Assembly: GCF_002161215.1 (NCBI RefSeq)
Contig: NZ_NFMB01000003.1
Coordinates: forward strand, 62,001 to 126,000
DNA from: Flavonifractor sp. An10
Lineage (GTDB): Bacteria; Bacillota; Clostridia; Oscillospirales; Oscillospiraceae
Reading direction: 5' to 3'
DNA length: 64,000 nucleotides
The translations under genes and the position numbers were made by a program. Positions 8,705-16,448 of the stretch are shown piece by piece (within the stretch, counting starts at the first letter, position 1; every line of letters starts with the position of its first letter). The notes under the pieces were generated by a model. The model ran no database searches. It saw only the letters and a list, made by a program, of their open reading frames with translations, and was not told the origin of the DNA.

Positions 8705-11653
8705 TTATGGATGCTGCTGGCTATTTGTCTGGTATGTGGAATTAAATGCGCTATCAAACAACCACTTTCTGAAAGAAGGATTGTTCTGAACTTCCCTGAA
8801 AAGTTCAAGCCCGCTTTGCATACTGTTCAATACAGCTTCATGGGCCGCACGGTCACTTTCGTCACGAGCATTCTGCTTGTCGGAGTATTGCATAGCATTG
8901 TTATATCGTTCATCTTTGCGGACGCTTTCAATAATATCGTTGATCTGCTTCTTAACTTTATCTTCGTCTGTCCATTCGATGTTGCCGAAAATATCATGGA
9001 ATTCCTTTAGGATATTTGTCAGCGAATCGAGTTCTGGGACATCAATGCCGGTACTGGTACTAACTGGAACAGGAGCAATTTCACCATTTTCGTTTTCTAA
9101 CTGTATACGCATGGTTTCTTGGGCTTCTGCACGATAGCTTTCCAGGTCAACATCTTCCAACAAACCCTCGGTATAATCTTCACCTTCAGGCTTTGGAAGT
9201 TTAGGAAGTAAAAGAGTTAGGAAGATAGACAATTTTTCCCACTGAATGCTGCCATACGGGAGGATTGCAGAAAGAAAATTGTAGGTGCGTACAAAAGTTT
9301 TGGCACTGCTTTTAAAATCAATCTGATCTTCCATAATTAAATCTTTATAGACCTCAACGCATCGATCAAGTATCGGATCGAGAACTTCACGAGGTTCATT
9401 GGCCAGATATCGTTCAACCAATGTATCCACATCTTGATCATTGAACACTTGAATTGACTCCATAGTGTCAATTAAATCATTAAGCTTATTTACGTCCGTT
9501 TCTCCAGAAAGTATGGTGGTTTTATAATAACGATCGAAAGCCTGTTTGATAATTCCTGGTTCGTTGACAAAGTCCAGAATGAACGTGTCCTTTTTATCTG
9601 GATGACTTCTATTTAGTCGAGAAAGTGTCTGCACTGCTTTAATATCTGACAGGCCCTTATCTACATACATGGTATGCAGCAAAGGCTCATCAAAACCCGT
9701 CTGAAATTTGTTGGCAACGATCAGAATTCGGTACGGGTCTGCCTTGAATGTTTTCTCAATTTTCGCACTCGGAAAACCATTCAAATCTGCTTCTGTAACT
9801 TGCTTTCCTTCGTACTCCGCAGTCCCAGAAAATGCAACAATCGCCTTAAACGGGCTCTTTCTTTCCTCCAGAAGTTTAGAGATTTCCTTGTAATATTCAA
9901 TGGCCCTTTTGATAGAACTACTGATTACCATAGCCCTGGCCTTGCCACCGACTTTTCCCTTCGCAATCACTTCTGTATGGAAATGCTCCACGATGATCTT
10001 AGACTTTTCGTGAATTGCATATTGGTTCGATTCCACATAGTAGCGCAGTAACCGTTGCGCACGTTTTTTATCAAACTGCGGGTCATCTTCAACGGTTTTT
10101 GCCAATTTATAATAGCTTTGCACCGGCGTGAAATACTTTAGCACATCCATGATAAAGCCTTCTTCGATAGCCTGCTTCATGGTATAAACATAATGAGGCT
10201 CAGGCTTCGTGGTTCCGTCTGGAAGAGGTACTTTTTTGCCAAACATCTCTAATGTCTTATTCTTTGGTGTAGCAGTAAAGGCAAAATAGCTGGCATTTTT
10301 AACCATTTTCCTGCCTTCAATAATGGTATTGATTTTATCTTCCAGCTCATCCTCATCTTCATAGACACTTCCGGAAAGGACCATGTTCATCTTTGCAGAC
10401 AAGGAACCATTTTGACTGGAATGAGCTTCATCAATCAAAATGGCAAAGTTTTTATCTTTATGTACTTCGCCAATGTCATCCAGAATAAACTGGAACTTAT
10501 GGACGATAGTAATGATGATTTTCTTGCCCTCTTTTAGAAGCTGTTTTAGGTCACTGGAACTTTTGGCCCAACCAACTGTTGCGGACACCTGCATAAATTG
10601 CTTGATAGTATCTTTAATCTGTTTATCCAGATTGATACGATCTGTTACGACGATAACGGTGTCGAAGATTTCTTTTCCACTGTCATTCTTTAGTGTTACA
10701 AGTTGGTGTGCCAACCATGCGATAGAATTGGACTTTCCGGAACCAGCACTATGCTGGATCAAATATCGCCCGCCGACACCATCTCGTTTTGCATCTGCCA
10801 ACAGAGACTTTACCACAGAAAGCTGATGGTAACGTGGGAACACTTGCTTATATGTTATAGCACCAGTATCCTCATCTTTTTCAGCAATGACTTGAGCATA
10901 GTTTTCAATAATATTGGACAGCTCATCCTTGGTCAAAATCTCTTTCCAAAGATAATCGGTTTTGATACCGTTTGGATTTGGCGGGTTGCCTGCACCGTCA
11001 TTAAATCCTTTGTTAAATGGCAGGAACCAAGACTTTTTTCCTTTCAGCTCCGTGCACATTCTTATCTCGTTATCATCGACAGCAAAGTGAACAATACAAC
11101 GCTTGAAACTAAACAGCACCTTATCTGGAGTACGGTCATTTTTGTACTGTTCTACCGCATCAAACACATTCTGTTTGGTAAGCTGATTTTTCAGCTCCAT
11201 AGTGATTACTGGCAGACCATTGATAAAAATACATACATCCAGAGCCAGACGAGGATTGAAGCTGGAATATTGCAGCTGCCGAGTAACGCTGAAAATATTC
11301 TTTTCGTACAACTCGGCTGCTTCTGGATTATGGATAGAAGGGCGAACATAGAATAAGTCCAAACGCAGATGTTTATAACGTATACCTTTACGAAGCAACT
11401 CAATAACGCCATCATTTTTCAGTTTCTTATCCAGCTGCTTTAAAAAACGTTCTTTTTCCAGATCACTATCCAGAATGTGAAGTTCATCCATTGCCTTTTT
11501 CTGCGTGGACAACAGGAATCGGAACAATCTACCTTCGTCGATGGCATATTCTTTATGATACTCGCTTGTATCGCCTTGCTCATAGCCATTGTTATTGACC
11601 AGTGAGTCTACAATTAAAGTTTCAAAACCATTTTCCTTTGTATTACTCGGCAT
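8705..11653 (-). CDS. hsdR: type I restriction enzyme R subunit
   Basis: A 982-aa restriction and translocation subunit. The N-terminal PD-(D/E)XK nuclease core is visible around LDVCIFINGLPVITMELKNQ (acidic-x-Lys in ELK). The SF2 motor carries Walker A (HSAGSGKSNS), DEAH (LIDEAHSSQ), TATPKN (motif III) and QTGFDEPLLHTM. ATG 11653 (MPSNTKENGFE) overlaps the end of hsdS by 11 nt, typical translational coupling. With HsdM and HsdS it would cut unmethylated DNA, but hsdS is interrupted, so activity in this strain is doubtful. Confidence 0.95.
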   Translation of the reverse strand: MPSNTKENGFETLIVDSLVNNNGYEQGDTSEYHKEYAIDEGRLFRFLLSTQKKAMDELHILDSDLEKERFLKQLDKKLKNDGVIELLRKGIRYKHLRLDLFYVRPSIHNPEAAELYEKNIFSVTRQLQYSSFNPRLALDVCIFINGLPVITMELKNQLTKQNVFDAVEQYKNDRTPDKVLFSFKRCIVHFAVDDNEIRMCTELKGKKSWFLPFNKGFNDGAGNPPNPNGIKTDYLWKEILTKDELSNIIENYAQVIAEKDEDTGAITYKQVFPRYHQLSVVKSLLADAKRDGVGGRYLIQHSAGSGKSNSIAWLAHQLVTLKNDSGKEIFDTVIVVTDRINLDKQIKDTIKQFMQVSATVGWAKSSSDLKQLLKEGKKIIITIVHKFQFILDDIGEVHKDKNFAILIDEAHSSQNGSLSAKMNMVLSGSVYEDEDELEDKINTIIEGRKMVKNASYFAFTATPKNKTLEMFGKKVPLPDGTTKPEPHYVYTMKQAIEEGFIMDVLKYFTPVQSYYKLAKTVEDDPQFDKKRAQRLLRYYVESNQYAIHEKSKIIVEHFHTEVIAKGKVGGKARAMVISSSIKRAIEYYKEISKLLEERKSPFKAIVAFSGTAEYEGKQVTEADLNGFPSAKIEKTFKADPYRILIVANKFQTGFDEPLLHTMYVDKGLSDIKAVQTLSRLNRSHPDKKDTFILDFVNEPGIIKQAFDRYYKTTILSGETDVNKLNDLIDTMESIQVFNDQDVDTLVERYLANEPREVLDPILDRCVEVYKDLIMEDQIDFKSSAKTFVRTYNFLSAILPYGSIQWEKLSIFLTLLLPKLPKPEGEDYTEGLLEDVDLESYRAEAQETMRIQLENENGEIAPVPVSTSTGIDVPELDSLTNILKEFHDIFGNIEWTDEDKVKKQINDIIESVRKDERYNNAMQYSDKQNARDESDRAAHEAVLNSMQSGLELFREVQNNPSFRKWLFDSAFNSTYQTNSQQHP

Positions 11654-12104
11654 CCTCTGCCACCTCCTCTGTATCATCCGGTGTATCTGCTACATCGATT
11701 TCGGTATCATCCTCCCGTATGTATTTTGGAATTACCACATCACGCACATCAATCTGACCAGTTACAACATCAGAAATCAAACGGGTACGATATTCTCTCA
11801 AGAGGTCAATTTCCTTCTGGAATGATGGGAGTACACTATCGATTTTGGCTACCTCTACATTGATATAATCGGCAATAGCTTTTTGCTCTTCCAAGGGGAT
11901 TAATGGCAAATCTACTTTCACGAAATTAGAATATCTTAAATCCTGCCCATCCCGGATGAATTCTGATGTGCCCTGCAATGCTTTGATGTATGATTTTGAT
12001 TTTAACAACCACTTGAAGTATTGTGTGCAAACCATTTCCTGGGGAAGTAATACGACATAATGCCATGTTACACATCCAGTAATTTCGCAAAGCTCAATAC
12101 CACC
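11643..12104 (-). pseudogene. hsdS: hsdS 3' fragment (split by IS110 element)
   Basis: C-terminal 153 codons of the specificity subunit: reads GGIELCEITGCVTWHYVVLL from the insertion edge, continues through LPLIPLEEQKAIADYI, the second conserved coiled-coil region (VLPSFQKEIDLLREYRTRLI), and ends in an acidic tail. The codon before the IS edge continues exactly the hsdS 5' fragment (13724-14617): SLRSFQ joined to GGIE. Translation from an internal ATG at 12035 is possible but would give only the end of the second target-recognition domain. Confidence 0.92.
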
Positions 12105-12234
12105 TTGCTACGAAAATAAGTAGCGAGGGCGTGAACCTTGACAAACAGGCTTTCAACGCCTCATGAAAAACCATCGCAGCACAAAAAGCGGCAGGCCAAA
12201 ACCTGTCGCCGGCCGAAGTATGGTACAGTGGGAA

Positions 12235-13473
12235 TCAGCCTGGTGCCACCACAAAGTACCCCAGCTTTTGCAGTTCGTTCACCATACGGCTGGCCCGTTT
12301 GCGCTCACTTTGTTTTCTGCGGATCTCAAAACAGTCTTCGTTGTATGGAGAACCTGTCTTCAACATCGTGTAAATCAGCGCCAGCAGTTTGCGAGCCAAA
12401 GCAATCGTTGCACGTTTAGCGCCCTTCCGCTGTTTTATCCTCCAGTACCAACCGGAGAGGTACAAGCTTCGTTTTCCGGAGATGACCCATCCCACCTCAC
12501 AGAGCATACTCTTCAGATACGGATTACCTTTGTTAATGTGAGCACTCTTGCGTTTTCCGGCACTCTCGTTGTTACCGGGACTCAAACCGGCCCAGGAGCA
12601 TATATGCTGGGAATCCGGAAAGGCACTCATATCGGTACCAATCTCCGCGATAATGGCTGCTGCCGCAGTTACATCAATACCCGGTATGGAGCACAGGAGG
12701 CTCAATGCCTCTTCGTGCTTTATGATCTCTTTCGTAATAGCGTCCTCCACAGTATGCCGGTGCTGTTCAAGTGCTTCCAAGTGCCCAAATATCATGCGAA
12801 GAAAGCCGCGCTGGTGCTCCGAGAGCGAACCGTTCAAGGCAATCAGTATTTCGTCGATACGTTTCCGGGTCTGTGTTTTCAGACACCGATCCAGAGCTTC
12901 CCGCGAAATATTTCCGTATTCCATGAGATGACGGATGATGTTTCGCCCGGAAGCGCCAAATGCGTCCGACAGAAACGCTGTGAAGCGGAAACCGGAGCTT
13001 TGCAGAAATTTATCGATGCGATTCTTTTGGGCGGTAATGTCGCGAACGATGCTCTTACGATACCGGGTCAGATGCCGCAGTTCCCGGAAGGTCTTATCTG
13101 GGATAAAACTTCCCTTTAGTAATCCGGCACGGAGCAATGTGGCGATCCATTGCGCGTCCCGCATATCCGTTTTGCGCCCAGGCACATTCTTCATGTGGCG
13201 GGCATTCACGACCAGAATGCTGATCTGCCCATCAAAACATGGCTCCAGCATTTCGTAAATAGGCTGCCAGTAGATCCCGGTGCTCTCCATAGCGACATAG
13301 CGGCACTCTGCTTCCAACACCCAATCCCGCAGTTTCCGCATTTCCGGGATAAGTGTGCTGAAGGAGCGAATCTCGATTTCCGGATCGGTGCCCAGTTCAC
13401 CTTTGGCAAGACAGGCAACAATAACGTCACGATGAATATCCAGTCCCATGGCGCAGGTCAATATGTCTTGCAT
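12235..13473 (-). CDS. IS110-family transposase (DEDD recombinase)
   Basis: A 412-aa transposase with an N-terminal RuvC-like DEDD domain: Asp in AMGLDIHRD, Glu in AMESTGIYW, Asp residues in GRKTDMRDAQW. The C-terminal Tnp_20 domain carries IPGIDVTAAAAIIAEIG and SWAGLSPGNNESAGKRKSAH with the catalytic serine region. ATG 13473 (MQDILTCAMGLD) has AGGGAGGG upstream; an earlier in-frame start would intrude into the likely bridge-RNA region. IS110 proteins recombine DNA under guidance of a bispecific bridge RNA. Confidence 0.95.
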   Translation of the reverse strand: MQDILTCAMGLDIHRDVIVACLAKGELGTDPEIEIRSFSTLIPEMRKLRDWVLEAECRYVAMESTGIYWQPIYEMLEPCFDGQISILVVNARHMKNVPGRKTDMRDAQWIATLLRAGLLKGSFIPDKTFRELRHLTRYRKSIVRDITAQKNRIDKFLQSSGFRFTAFLSDAFGASGRNIIRHLMEYGNISREALDRCLKTQTRKRIDEILIALNGSLSEHQRGFLRMIFGHLEALEQHRHTVEDAITKEIIKHEEALSLLCSIPGIDVTAAAAIIAEIGTDMSAFPDSQHICSWAGLSPGNNESAGKRKSAHINKGNPYLKSMLCEVGWVISGKRSLYLSGWYWRIKQRKGAKRATIALARKLLALIYTMLKTGSPYNEDCFEIRRKQSERKRASRMVNELQKLGYFVVAPG

Positions 13474-13723
13474 CAAATCCCTCCCTGAATTATGCAGGCT
13501 GGGAATTGCCCGGGTGGGTATCCGAACTTTGCTACTCGTGCTCTTCACTTATGTGACGCAACATACTGCTGTTCTCTTGGGCAACTCGTCCACGTTGAAC
13601 AAACGGGGTGAAAATCCACCAAGGTGCAACCGGACTACGCCTGCTGTATTCAGTTTAGCAAATCCTTCGGTTAACGCACAGACTATATTTTCATTCTCAG
13701 CTGTGATGGCATTTCATGAGGCG
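13474..13723 (-). ncRNA. candidate bridge RNA region of the IS110 element
   Basis: A 250-nt non-coding end upstream of the transposase, where IS110-group elements encode their bridge RNA. Two short matches are visible: RNA CACCUUG (template 13620-13626) is complementary to CAAGGTG at the hsdS insertion site, and GTAGCAA (13535-13529) equals the element's far end (12111-12105). Such 7-mers can occur by chance, and the order of guides was not resolved, so boundaries and pairing are provisional. Confidence 0.45.
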
Positions 13724-14617
13724 TTGAAAACTGCGTAAACTAATTACAAAATTACCCAGATCTACATGTTTCCAATTATCCAGCCCCTGATTGGCAACGA
13801 CAATTCGCCTGCCCTCCCTACGCATGTATTCTTCTTGTGAAATAATCCCATATTTTTGGCTGGCGGTTGCAGACACATCCTCATCTCTACGACGTTCCTT
13901 GCCTTCGACAAATACTCTTTTGGAAGGAATCATTTTCCAGTGAGCCGGAATGTTTCCCATCCAGCAGCCCGGAATGTTTTGAACTGGGACAGTTGGATCA
14001 ATTCCTTTTGTAACGGCATTATTTATAAGGGTGACTTTACGTTCCTCGAGCAGCTTGATTTGCTTTTGAAATCCATGAATCATGTGGTTGATTTTAGATA
14101 TCTGCCAATCCAGATAACGAACAATCTGATCTTGCTCTTCACGAGGTGGTACAGGAATATAAATATTTCGCATTTCTTCCCATTTTGTAGTCCATAGATC
14201 AGAAACAAGTCCCTTTCCATTTCTATAAAACTCTTCAGAGAAGTAATGATTTCTCAAAAGATAGTGGTAAAAGTTTACGTTTAATTCATGATGCGGTTTC
14301 AAAACGGTGATAATTAGGGAAGCAGAACCATCATAGTTTGACATACCGCCTGATCCTTTACGATCAGAACGACTATTGATGGCAAAATCACCTTTCCTAA
14401 TTAGCTTTCTGTTATCCCCATTATCAGTTTTAACAGCAGTGTCCAGCTGAGGAACCACTCCCATTTTCCCAACGGAAAGAGGAGGATAATCTTTATCGGA
14501 AACTTTCTCCCTACGCTCGGAAAAAACCTTCCGCATTTTTGTAGATACCCAGTTTACCGGGATGCTATTATACCAAACAGCTTCTTTTGAACTTTTATAT
14601 TTTTCATATCTTCTCAT
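13724..14617 (-). pseudogene. hsdS: hsdS 5' fragment (split by IS110 element)
   Basis: First 298 codons of the type I specificity subunit: complete first target-recognition domain, the central conserved coiled-coil region (PPREEQDQIVRYLDWQISKI to LLEERKVTLINNAVTKG) and the start of the second domain (GNIPAHWKMIPSKRVF to FVISLRSFQ). Reading continues 8 codons into IS sequence, then stops at 13697. ATG 14617 lies 4 nt after hsdM. Half-length HsdS proteins can dimerise and give working enzymes with palindromic targets, so some activity is possible. Confidence 0.92.
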
Positions 14618-14621
14618 TGCA

Positions 14622-16448
14622 TCAGCCCCCTAAAATTCCTTCCAGAAGGCCGTCGGTTTCACGCTCGATTGCTCGAATATCCTGAGTAATTTCCTCCAGC
14701 GTGCGTAGCTGTACTGGTTGATAGAAATACTTTGTAAAGGACAGCTCATATCCTATTTTTTCAGAACCCGGTTTGATAAACACATCCGGCGCATACGGTC
14801 TGACCTCATTTTCAATAAAGGCTTCGATACCACCCTCGTAAGTGAATGGAATAATCTCCTTGTCGCTGTTTGGTTTCACAGGTTTACCTTTCTTATCCAG
14901 AATTGGCTTTCCGTTTTCATCATATTTGGGGGTGTACACAGGTACTTCCCAATAACCGAACTCGTAGGTATCAAATACCTTGCTGTAACGTTCATCGGCC
15001 TGATCAAACGCCATATACAATTCCAGAATGTGCTCCCTAATAGCTTTGTCAACCTCACAGTTCTTTTCGCCCAGATTCTTACGCAGAGGTTTTTTGAAGG
15101 AGGTGGCATCAATCAGCTGTACTTTACCCTTGCGCCGCTCCTCCTTTTTATTAGCAAGAACCCAGATGTATGTACTAATTCCGGTGTTATAGAACATCTT
15201 TTCCGGAACAGCAACAATTGCTTCCAACAAATCCTGTTCCAGAATGTACTGACGCAAATTGGACGGCCCTTGACCAGCTTTTCCGGTAAAGAGAGATGAG
15301 CCGTTGTGAACCTCAACAATACGGCTGCCTAACACGGTGTCCCTTTTCATTTTGCTGATATTATTGGCAAGGAACAACATCTGTGGATCGCTGATATCCG
15401 GAATCAAAGAGAAGTCTTCACCCTTGTAATTCACACGGAAACGAGTATCTGTGATATCGTCTTTTTTGATGTCACCCCATGCTTTCAGATCCGTTTTCCA
15501 AGGAGTTCCAAAGGGAGGATTGGAGAGCATAAAGTCAAAGGACTCTCCGGCAAAACCATCGTTAGAGATAGTAGAACCAAAGAAAATATTATTTGCCTGC
15601 GTACCCTCGCCTTTAACCAGCATATCACTGCGGGCAATTGCATAGGTCTCGTCGGAGTTCTCCTGACCATAAAGATGGATGGATATTTTCTTGTCCGTTT
15701 CCTTTGCTATTTCCTGAATACGCTCTTCAGCAACGGTCAACATGCCACCTGTTCCACAGGCCCCATCATAGATGCGGTAGGTTGTACTTTGAATTTTATC
15801 CTTTACCGGCACAAACGCCAAATCGGTAATCAATTCTACAATATCACGGGGGGTAAAATGGCGTCCGGCATCAGTAATATTGGTTTCTTCGTTGAATTTA
15901 CGGATTACCTCTTCAAACACCGTTCCCATGGTATGGTTATCCAGTGCAGGCTGTACAATATTGCCCTGTGCATCGTACACAGGACGGTTTGAGAGGTTAA
16001 CGGTAGAATCGGTAAACTTACTTATGAGCAAGCCCAAAATATCATGCTCTGAGAGTTTATCAATCTGATTTCTAAACTCAAAGCGTTTGATAATATCCTG
16101 CACGTTCTGAGAAAAACCATTCAAATACAAGATAAAGTCAGCTTTTAATTGTTGCTGATTTGTGCGGGATTTCAAGTCGGACAATGTATAAGGGGAGCTA
16201 TTGCAAAAAGCTTCTCCTGCCACACTGCACAGAGCTTCGTCCTGCTCAGTAATACCAGCAGCATCCAACTGTGCTTTCATTTTCAGAACTTTTTCTTTTG
16301 TAGGTTCCAAAACTGCATCAAAACGGCGGATCACCATCATTGGCAGAATAATCTTTCTGTAATCACCCACATCATAAGTATCTACCAGGCAGTCGTTGGC
16401 AATGCCGAACAAAAACGATACGATCTGCCCAAAATTCGATTTATCCAT
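14622..16448 (-). CDS. hsdM: type I restriction-modification DNA methyltransferase
   Basis: A 608-aa N6-adenine methyltransferase subunit. HsdM N-terminal helical domain, SAM-binding region (DGACGTGGML), catalytic NPPF in MLSNPPFGTPW, and a C-terminal helical extension. Its ATG overlaps the stop of the upstream XRE gene (TAATG), and hsdS starts 4 nt downstream, so XRE-hsdM-hsdS-hsdR is one operon. Without HsdS it has no sequence specificity. Confidence 0.95.
   Translation of the reverse strand: MDKSNFGQIVSFLFGIANDCLVDTYDVGDYRKIILPMMVIRRFDAVLEPTKEKVLKMKAQLDAAGITEQDEALCSVAGEAFCNSSPYTLSDLKSRTNQQQLKADFILYLNGFSQNVQDIIKRFEFRNQIDKLSEHDILGLLISKFTDSTVNLSNRPVYDAQGNIVQPALDNHTMGTVFEEVIRKFNEETNITDAGRHFTPRDIVELITDLAFVPVKDKIQSTTYRIYDGACGTGGMLTVAEERIQEIAKETDKKISIHLYGQENSDETYAIARSDMLVKGEGTQANNIFFGSTISNDGFAGESFDFMLSNPPFGTPWKTDLKAWGDIKKDDITDTRFRVNYKGEDFSLIPDISDPQMLFLANNISKMKRDTVLGSRIVEVHNGSSLFTGKAGQGPSNLRQYILEQDLLEAIVAVPEKMFYNTGISTYIWVLANKKEERRKGKVQLIDATSFKKPLRKNLGEKNCEVDKAIREHILELYMAFDQADERYSKVFDTYEFGYWEVPVYTPKYDENGKPILDKKGKPVKPNSDKEIIPFTYEGGIEAFIENEVRPYAPDVFIKPGSEKIGYELSFTKYFYQPVQLRTLEEITQDIRAIERETDGLLEGILGG

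What the first reader, a model, noticed from the sequence alone, without database searches (positions are those of the whole stretch)
12108..13723. IS110-family element in hsdS with a candidate bridge RNA and guide-like matches
The transposase has a DEDD fold and a 250-nt upstream non-coding end, the bridge-RNA location in IS110-group elements. A 7-nt stretch of the predicted RNA is complementary to the hsdS target (CAAGGTG) and another equals the element's far end (GTAGCAA). The insertion joint itself is defined to within the CAA triplet by the restored hsdS reading frame.
Basis: partly seen in the sequence, partly recalled or inferred. Interest (0 to 1): 0.66.

Follow-up and report, generated by a model that had tools for sequence, protein, structure and literature searches.

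The report
Jumping gene with reversed-order guide RNA
A small bacterial jumping gene sits in a restriction-enzyme gene and very probably chooses its landing sites with its own guide RNA; the RNA lies upstream of the enzyme gene, but its two target-reading parts come in the opposite order to that published for the studied members with an upstream RNA.

Summary
Window 12108-13723 (minus strand) is a complete IS110-family element: seven identical 1616-bp copies lie in the genome, each between CAA triplets in a TTTTCAA/GGTGC-like target. A homologous hsdS with an empty site and a single CAA exists in a congener. The 250-nt upstream end encodes a conserved two-loop RNA with some compensatory changes. 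Its segment TGCACCTTG pairs with the target's right side, TTTGTTCAA matches the left side if one G bulges, and GTAGCAA equals the right end plus core. In relatives at about 34-43% protein identity with other targets, loop segments track targets: right side 0 of 20,000 permutations, left side 0 of 20,000. The bridge-RNA reading is supported. Two features differ from the IS110-group RNAs I read about: the guides come in IS1111 order (top-strand guide first; searching the other order gives no signal) although the RNA is upstream, and the 5' strand of the donor loop tracks a left-end site about 20 bp inside the element (0 of 20,000), not the bases beside the core. RNA expression and activity are untested.

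The parts
12108..13723 (-). IS110-family element (without its 3-bp core)
   Evidence: 7 identical copies end exactly here
12235..13473 (-). DEDD transposase/recombinase, 412 aa (P0001); D12, E63, D103, D106 and serine of GLSPGNNESAG (positions counted; E63, D103, D106 and the serine align to IS621, D12 lies outside that alignment)
13724..13726 (-). core CAA at left junction (end of left target TTTTCAA)
   Evidence: CAA in 15 of 15 two-sided sites
12105..12107 (-). core CAA at right junction (start of right target CAAGGTGG)
13494..13645 (-). predicted bridge RNA, target loop then donor loop inside an outer stem; ends approximate
   Evidence: fold; alignment; pair counts
13652..13660 (-). TGCTAAACT, extended -10-like box just upstream of the RNA; TGCTAnnnT in all seven aligned rows
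   Evidence: alignment; promoter reading is inference
13620..13628 (-). target guide 1 (TGCACCTTG), pairs with top strand of right target CAAGGTGCA
   Evidence: site consensus; permutation test on relatives
13595..13603 (-). target guide 2 (TTTGTTCAA, probably with the G bulged), equals top strand of left target TTTTCAA
13593..13594 (-). CG after guide 2, equals the first two bases of the left end; handshake-guide-like
   Evidence: sequence; mechanism known for IS621 (passages)
13566..13572 (-). donor loop 5' strand (ACAGCAG), tracks left-end motif
13698..13704 (-). left-end subterminal motif ACAGCTG, positions 20-26 from the left end
13529..13535 (-). donor loop 3' strand (GTAGCAA), equals right end plus core
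13688..13694 (-). ATGAAAA box in left end, inverted match (GAAAA) to TTTTC at the right end
12108..12116 (-). right terminus TTTTCGTAG
   Evidence: right ends of nine loci were found by searching for TTTTCGTAGCAA, so their identity here is by selection
12151..12180 (-). inverted copy (90%) of the left junction 13700-13729, inside the right end
   Evidence: kept in close relatives
13727..14617 (-). hsdS 5' part (interrupted specificity gene)
   Evidence: Methylase_S
11643..12104 (-). hsdS 3' part
   Evidence: frame across the joint; no Pfam family on its own

Best explanation
This is a recently active IS110-family element whose left (upstream) end makes a bridge RNA. The recombinase-RNA complex picks targets of the form TTTTCAAGGTGC: the 5' strand of the target loop (UGCACCUUG) pairs with the top strand right of and including the core, and the 3' strand (UUUGUUCAA) pairs with the bottom strand left of and including the core. 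[quoted passage not shown] Insertion joins circle and target at the CAA core without further duplication. Shown: exact ends, target consensus, complementarity, tracking of loop segments and targets across relatives, structure. Inferred: that the RNA is made, bound and acts; circle formation; which strand is cut.
For: Seven identical copies at seven sites. 15 sites with both flanks: left TTTTCAA in 14, 15, 12, 14, 15, 15, 15 of 15 per base; right G 11, G 15, T 10, G 7, C 12 of 15. Right target versus own upstream end, 14 elements: 99.5 against a permuted mean of 78.0 (sd 4.8), 0 of 20,000. Left target versus the segment 3' of guide 1, 12 elements: 99.25 against 84.0 (sd 2.9), 0 of 20,000; repeated with other bounds 98.25 against 82.8 (sd 3.0), 0 of 20,000, while the segment 5' of guide 1 gives 79.5 against 82.6, 18,257 of 20,000. 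Stems: 90.3% of cells paired, 6 pairs changed on both sides, against at most 40.9% and 3 when slid. Left-end motif versus donor loop, 14 elements: 105 of 126 against 84.9 (sd 3.3), 0 of 20,000; neighbouring left-end windows gave 14,646 and 2,497 of 20,000. Empty hsdS site in a congener.
Against: No expression or binding data. In one search only 7 of 14 elements rank first with their own RNA, and the window's own site ranks 8th (its exact match is 7 nt, the test used 9). In one search, 9 of 12 rank first, six of these tied with another element's RNA (L002, L034, L036, L061, L045, L044); L035, L037, L066 do not. In a free search over the RNA zone 8 of 12 place the left match 3' of guide 1 at 24-40 nt; L002, L035, L037 and L066 do not. 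Right ends were set by eye after I had seen candidate matches, so one search was not blind, and rows of one subgroup share guides. Guide 2 has a G where the target has T in 15 of 15 sites, unless that G bulges. Three of the seven doubly changed cells, both of the target-loop stem among them, come from L064, whose gene holds a stop; 'further pair types' did not exceed its shuffles (452 of 500). In the L061 subgroup the cores at the two junctions do not agree exactly (TAA against TAT). Many relatives could not be scored (see Tried and rejected).
Confidence: 0.92

Rival explanations
1. The transposase itself reads the target by protein-DNA contact, and the upstream end is only a regulatory leader; the matches are chance or relics of past target sequence.
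For: In the window element alone the two 7-nt matches together arise in 3 of 5,000 shuffles; close relatives share both guides and targets, so they cannot separate the two readings.
Against: Across relatives with different targets the RNA segments change with the target on both sides, and the segments lie in stem-bounded loops.
Confidence: 0.04
2. The RNA is read from the opposite strand, which would change the polarity of the guides.
For: Complementarity alone does not fix the transcribed strand.
Against: On the sense strand both target guides carry the core at their 3' ends, as in IS621 (passages), and a TGCTAnnnT box precedes them. On the opposite strand the cores would be at the 5' ends and the arrangement would still not be that of IS621.
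Confidence: 0.03
3. Ordinary IS621-type element with guide order left-then-right, misread here.
For: The RNA is upstream as in the IS110 group. In the free search four of 12 elements, the window's among them, do not place the left match 24-40 nt 3' of guide 1.
Against: Searching the left target 5' of guide 1 gives no signal (18,257 of 20,000), 3' of it does (0 of 20,000); eight relatives give exact 9-nt matches there. The donor loop is turned the same way: the segment equal to the right end is on its 3' strand.
Confidence: 0.03

Closest known systems
IS621 bridge RNA (Durrant 2024, PMC11208160; Hiraizumi 2024, PMC11208158)
   Same: RNA upstream of the gene; target loop then donor loop; both target guides end in the core; DEDD plus serine recombinase; handshake-like bases after the second guide
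   Different: Guide order reversed in both loops; transposase 412 aa against 328 for IS621 (PDB chain); SA instead of SG after the proposed serine nucleophile; three bases (CAA) shared at the joint instead of a CT dinucleotide; donor loop 5' strand tracks a site about 20 bp inside the left end
IS1111-group seekRNA (Siddiquee 2024, PMC11187229)
   Same: Top-strand guide 5' of bottom-strand guide
   Different: RNA upstream, not downstream; 412 aa against about 340; no sTIR of the usual placing
ISEc21 seekRNA (IS110 family, PMC11187229)
   Same: Upstream RNA
   Different: There the bottom-strand match is 5' of the top-strand match; here the reverse
IS110-like ISArsp3 (L080)
   Same: Same transposase clade, SA motif
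   Different: Guides could not be set: all four records carry it beside the same upstream gene

Membership tests
IS110 family (DEDD recombinases) | DEDD RuvC domain plus Transposase_20 domain | tested here: met
   aligned to IS621
IS110 family (DEDD recombinases) | serine in G--P----S motif | tested here: met
   GLSPGNNESA; followed by A, not G, in 22 of the 23 rows of its clade; L074 reads CLSPGNKISGG
IS110 family (DEDD recombinases) | circular intermediate | not testable with these tools
   needs PCR
Bridge-RNA elements | long non-coding end with two structured loops | tested here: met
Bridge-RNA elements | loop segments covary with target | tested here: met
Bridge-RNA elements | loop segments match donor ends | tested here: met
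   right end GTAGCAA; left-end motif
Bridge-RNA elements | RNA bound by recombinase and needed for recombination | not testable with these tools
   needs RNA pull-down and recombination assay
IS110 group (IS621/ISEc21 type) | RNA upstream of the gene | tested here: met
   250 nt upstream, 127 nt downstream
IS110 group (IS621/ISEc21 type) | bottom-strand guide 5' of top-strand guide | tested here: not met
   and the order control
IS1111 group | RNA downstream of the gene | tested here: not met
   conserved structure and guides are upstream
IS1111 group | top-strand guide 5' of bottom-strand guide | tested here: met
IS1111 group | sTIR of 7-17 bp near both ends | tested here: inconclusive
   a 30-bp inverted pair exists but one arm abuts and includes the left core and the other lies 43 bp inside the right end; a short GAAAA/TTTTC pair flanks the donor motifs
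IS1111 group | transposase clade | tested here: inconclusive
   P0001 falls in a clade of 23 rows apart from the 340-aa proteins L073, L081; those were taken as IS1111-like by length, not by name, and long branches meet

The most novel reading that the evidence does not exclude
A third bridge-RNA architecture: in a clade of long ('SA') IS110 recombinases the RNA stays upstream but is turned end for end relative to target and donor (IS1111 guide order). Its donor loop combines a core-pairing end with a guide for the opposite strand of a left-end site about 20-35 bp inside, so the donor is read across a spacer and a strand switch rather than in one 7-nt stretch beside the core.
Probability: 0.45. 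Interest if true: 0.7.

Novelty: new variant of a known kind. Interest (0 to 1): 0.52.

Why it matters
Siddiquee et al. left open whether the reversed guide order of IS1111 RNAs means a different mechanism (discussion). Elements with an upstream RNA but IS1111 order separate the two traits, so order can be tested apart from RNA position. The left-end donor match, if real, is a second way of reading donor ends and would change how such systems are reprogrammed. The naturally different guide and target pairs found here are ready test material.

Tried and rejected
Left guide in the hairpin loop (ATTTTCA): rejected, since the loop varies in L023 and L026 while the target does not. Inversion of the cassette at the 30-bp inverted repeat as origin of the reversed order: rejected, since of 23 distant relatives 19 show no inverted 11-nt seed between the two ends and 4 (L035, L039, L043, L060) show short ones elsewhere. 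DNA hairpin in the left-end spacer that would bring the inner motif to the core: not general; 13 spacers folded, two with z below -2 (L061, L045), the window's own does not fold. Rfam: no match in the window at gathering score. Viral contigs: no relative by this query; phages: 12 records with distant matches only, all under 60% identity, not followed; plasmids by near match: none. A pattern search in ten genomes matched 2, both elements already held. A hand alignment of the left-end motif (16 elements, 67 against 40.8, 0 of 20,000) mistyped L068, which scored 0; one search replaces it.

Literature: the listings of searches show no paper that I could recognise as describing an upstream RNA with IS1111 order; figures are not held, so Durrant Extended Data Fig. 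10c (ISPpu10, ISAar29, ISHne5) could not be checked beyond its legend. Seen: PMC11208160 abstract, sections 6, 7, 12, 21 and passages; PMC11187229 abstract, sections 6, 9, 12, 13, 14; PMC11208158 passages only; all others as search listings.

Left out of counts: L027 (same flanks as L026), L028 (right end missing), L024 and L025 (right flank only) from the 15 two-sided sites. Not or 54: L058, L038, L039, L050, L059, L042, L043, L046 and L040, L041, L060, L065, L070, L071, L072 (right end not set), L064 (no right end), L074, L075, L080 (fetched later). L067 and L069 are only. Of 28 elements given, L066 and L058 had no box; the other 26 gave 178.25 against 156.9 (sd 4.6), 0 of 20,000; one search used 14 of them as representatives that I chose.

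Full report
What is there. The window carries a type I restriction-modification locus on the minus strand: hsdM (14622-16448), hsdS in two pieces and hsdR (8705-11677). Between the hsdS pieces lies a DEDD transposase gene of 412 codons with 250 nt upstream and 127 nt downstream. A search of the window's own genome with 12108-13723 found seven places, all 100% identical over all 1616 bases. Their flanks differ up to the same two points, and all seven have CAA on both sides. Copies 98.9% identical lie in Angelakisella massiliensis and Pseudoflavonifractor sp. An184, and 88% identical copies at four sites in Pseudoflavonifractor sp. Marseille-P3106, so the element has probably moved recently between genera.

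Target. Fifteen sites with both flanks (seven of the window's genome, eight of relatives) share TTTTCAA on the left (14, 15, 12, 14, 15, 15, 15 of 15 per base) and GGTGC on the right (G 11 with A 4, G 15, T 10, G 7, C 12). The hsdS site reads as the codons SFQ|GGIE. A 70% identical hsdS region (89 of 127 bases) in a congener has CTTTCAAGGTGG with one CAA and no insert, within an uninterrupted 429-residue frame. The reading frame alone cannot say whether one or two CAA belong to hsdS, since CAA is one codon and both joins stay in frame.

RNA. The upstream end folds into an outer stem around two hairpins. Aligned over seven rows, 33 pairs of this structure are formed in 90.3% of cells, with 6 pairs changed on both sides; sliding the partners gives 33-41% and at most 3. 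The measure 'further pair types' does not exceed its shuffles (452 of 500 reach it), the covariation score mostly does (7 of 500), and 3 of the 7 doubly changed cells come from L064. The first hairpin holds TGCACCTTG on its 5' strand and TTTGTTCAA on its 3' strand. The first is complementary to CAAGGTGCA, the consensus right side including the core; the second matches TTTTCAA if one G bulges (without a bulge that G faces a target position that is T in 15 of 15). L064 lacks that G (TTTTTCAA). The second hairpin ends in GTAGCAA, which is the right terminus plus core.

Do guides track targets? Relatives at about 34-43% protein identity have other guides and other flanks. I set right ends from the conserved TTTC stretch and its match, in part imperfect, to the donor loop, by eye and after seeing candidate target matches, and asked whether each element's right target pairs better with its own upstream end than with those of others. 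Over 14 elements the summed score is 99.5 against 78.0 (sd 4.8) for permuted pairs; 0 of 20,000 permutations reach it. Examples: L034 TTTTCTTTG with CAAAGAGAA, L036 GGCTTTTTT with AAAAAAGCC, L035 and L066 GGGACGGTT with AACCGTCCC, L068 GAGACTCCT with AGGAGTCTC. Seven of 14 rank first; the window's own site, L067, L063, L045, L062, L044 and L069 do not. For the left side, over 12 elements, the sum is 99.25 against 84.0 (sd 2.9), 0 of 20,000; examples are TCTACAAAC (L034), GCGTGAAAC (L036), ATTGTAATC (L063), CCCGCAGTC (L068), each present near the left junction and in the 3' strand of the target loop. Nine of 12 rank first, six of these tied. The left ends of relatives are set by this match itself, so the two extra bases shared with the left end (a handshake-guide-like feature) are independent only in the window element, where the RNA reads CAACG and the left end begins CG.

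Order of guides. One search looked only 3' of guide 1, so I tested the order separately. Searching the left junction's sequence 5' of guide 1 gives 79.5 against a permuted 82.6, reached by 18,257 of 20,000; searching 3' of it gives 98.25 against 82.8, reached by none. In a free search 8 of 12 elements place an exact 9-nt match 24-40 nt 3' of the start of guide 1; L002 (the window), L035, L037 and L066 do not. So where it can be seen, the segment pairing with the top strand (right target) is 5' of the segment pairing with the bottom strand (left target). [quoted passage not shown] In ISEc21, also with an upstream RNA, the top-strand match is 3' (PMC11187229, section read). In the IS1111 elements tested there, the top-strand match is 5'. 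So this element has the IS110 position and the IS1111 order. The donor loop is turned the same way: the segment equal to the right end is on its 3' strand. In the flipped frame the shared triplet is TTG; a T in the core fits the IS621 preference for T (passage), which is an inference.

A left-end donor match. The 5' strand of the donor loop resembles not the bases beside the core but a left-end motif just before a conserved ATGAAAA-like box, about 20-35 bp inside: CACAACCAA in L064, GCACAAATGAT in L067, CACCTTTAA in L075 (a Chloroflexota plasmid), ACAGC.G in the window. With the left-end window fixed relative to the box, 14 representative elements give 105 of 126 matching bases against 84.9 (sd 3.3) for permuted pairs, 0 of 20,000; three other windows over the motif also give 0, and two neighbouring left-end windows give no signal (14,646 and 2,497 of 20,000). 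An earlier free 8-mer test gave 0 of 20,000 on 26 elements and 6 of 20,000 on 12 representatives, with a reverse-complement control of 8,542 of 20,000; in it the window's own row ranked 7th. In several elements the RNA segment is followed by TTG (CTG in L068, whose core is CAG), which could pair with the core on the top strand. So the donor guide may pair with the core on one strand and with the inner motif on the other. None of the published RNAs in the sections I read is described so; I did not test IS621 itself.

Family. The protein falls in a clade of 23 rows, 22 of which read G--P----SA instead of SG (L074 reads SG), apart from IS621/ISCro4 fragments and from 340-aa proteins that I take for IS1111-like by length; some branches are long and the deep forks are unsure. 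Siddiquee et al. note a subgroup that includes IS110 itself with 395-455 aa (section read), which fits in length.

Verdict. The finding is a real, probably recently mobile IS110-family element with a well-supported bridge RNA. The kind is known; the arrangement is a variant I have not found described in the searches named. What is missing is any experiment.

Noticed in passing
window 12134-12146: AACCTTGACAAAC in the right end reads on the element strand as GTTTGTCAAGGTT, very like the element's own target; kept in form in close relatives. Perhaps a self-target or regulatory site.
   Followed up: partly
window 12151-12180 and 13700-13729: 30-bp inverted repeat: the right end carries an inverted copy of the left junction including TTTCAA of the target; present in close relatives, not seen in the 23 distant ones examined. 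Function unknown.
   Followed up: partly
window 13697-14617: The truncated HsdS frame (306 aa) keeps a first specificity domain; half-length HsdS proteins can be active as dimers (recalled), so the system may have changed specificity rather than died.
   Followed up: no
L044, L045, L062: These relatives carry the segment TAGGAGGA where guide 1 lies, complementary to TCCTCCTA; the right targets of L044 and L062 hold TCCTCCT, so a Shine-Dalgarno-like sequence lies on the other strand.
   Followed up: no
15 insertion sites: Bases -17 to -11 of the target (GG..ATT) are also biased although no guide segment covers them; cause not examined.
   Followed up: no
L003 1189-1268: Rfam pemK RNA near one insertion site.
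   Followed up: no
L007 at the insertion joint: This copy lies early in a frame that looks like an IS256-family transposase (recalled likeness; MSEKIVQLNEEVI|KGQLKELV).
   Followed up: no
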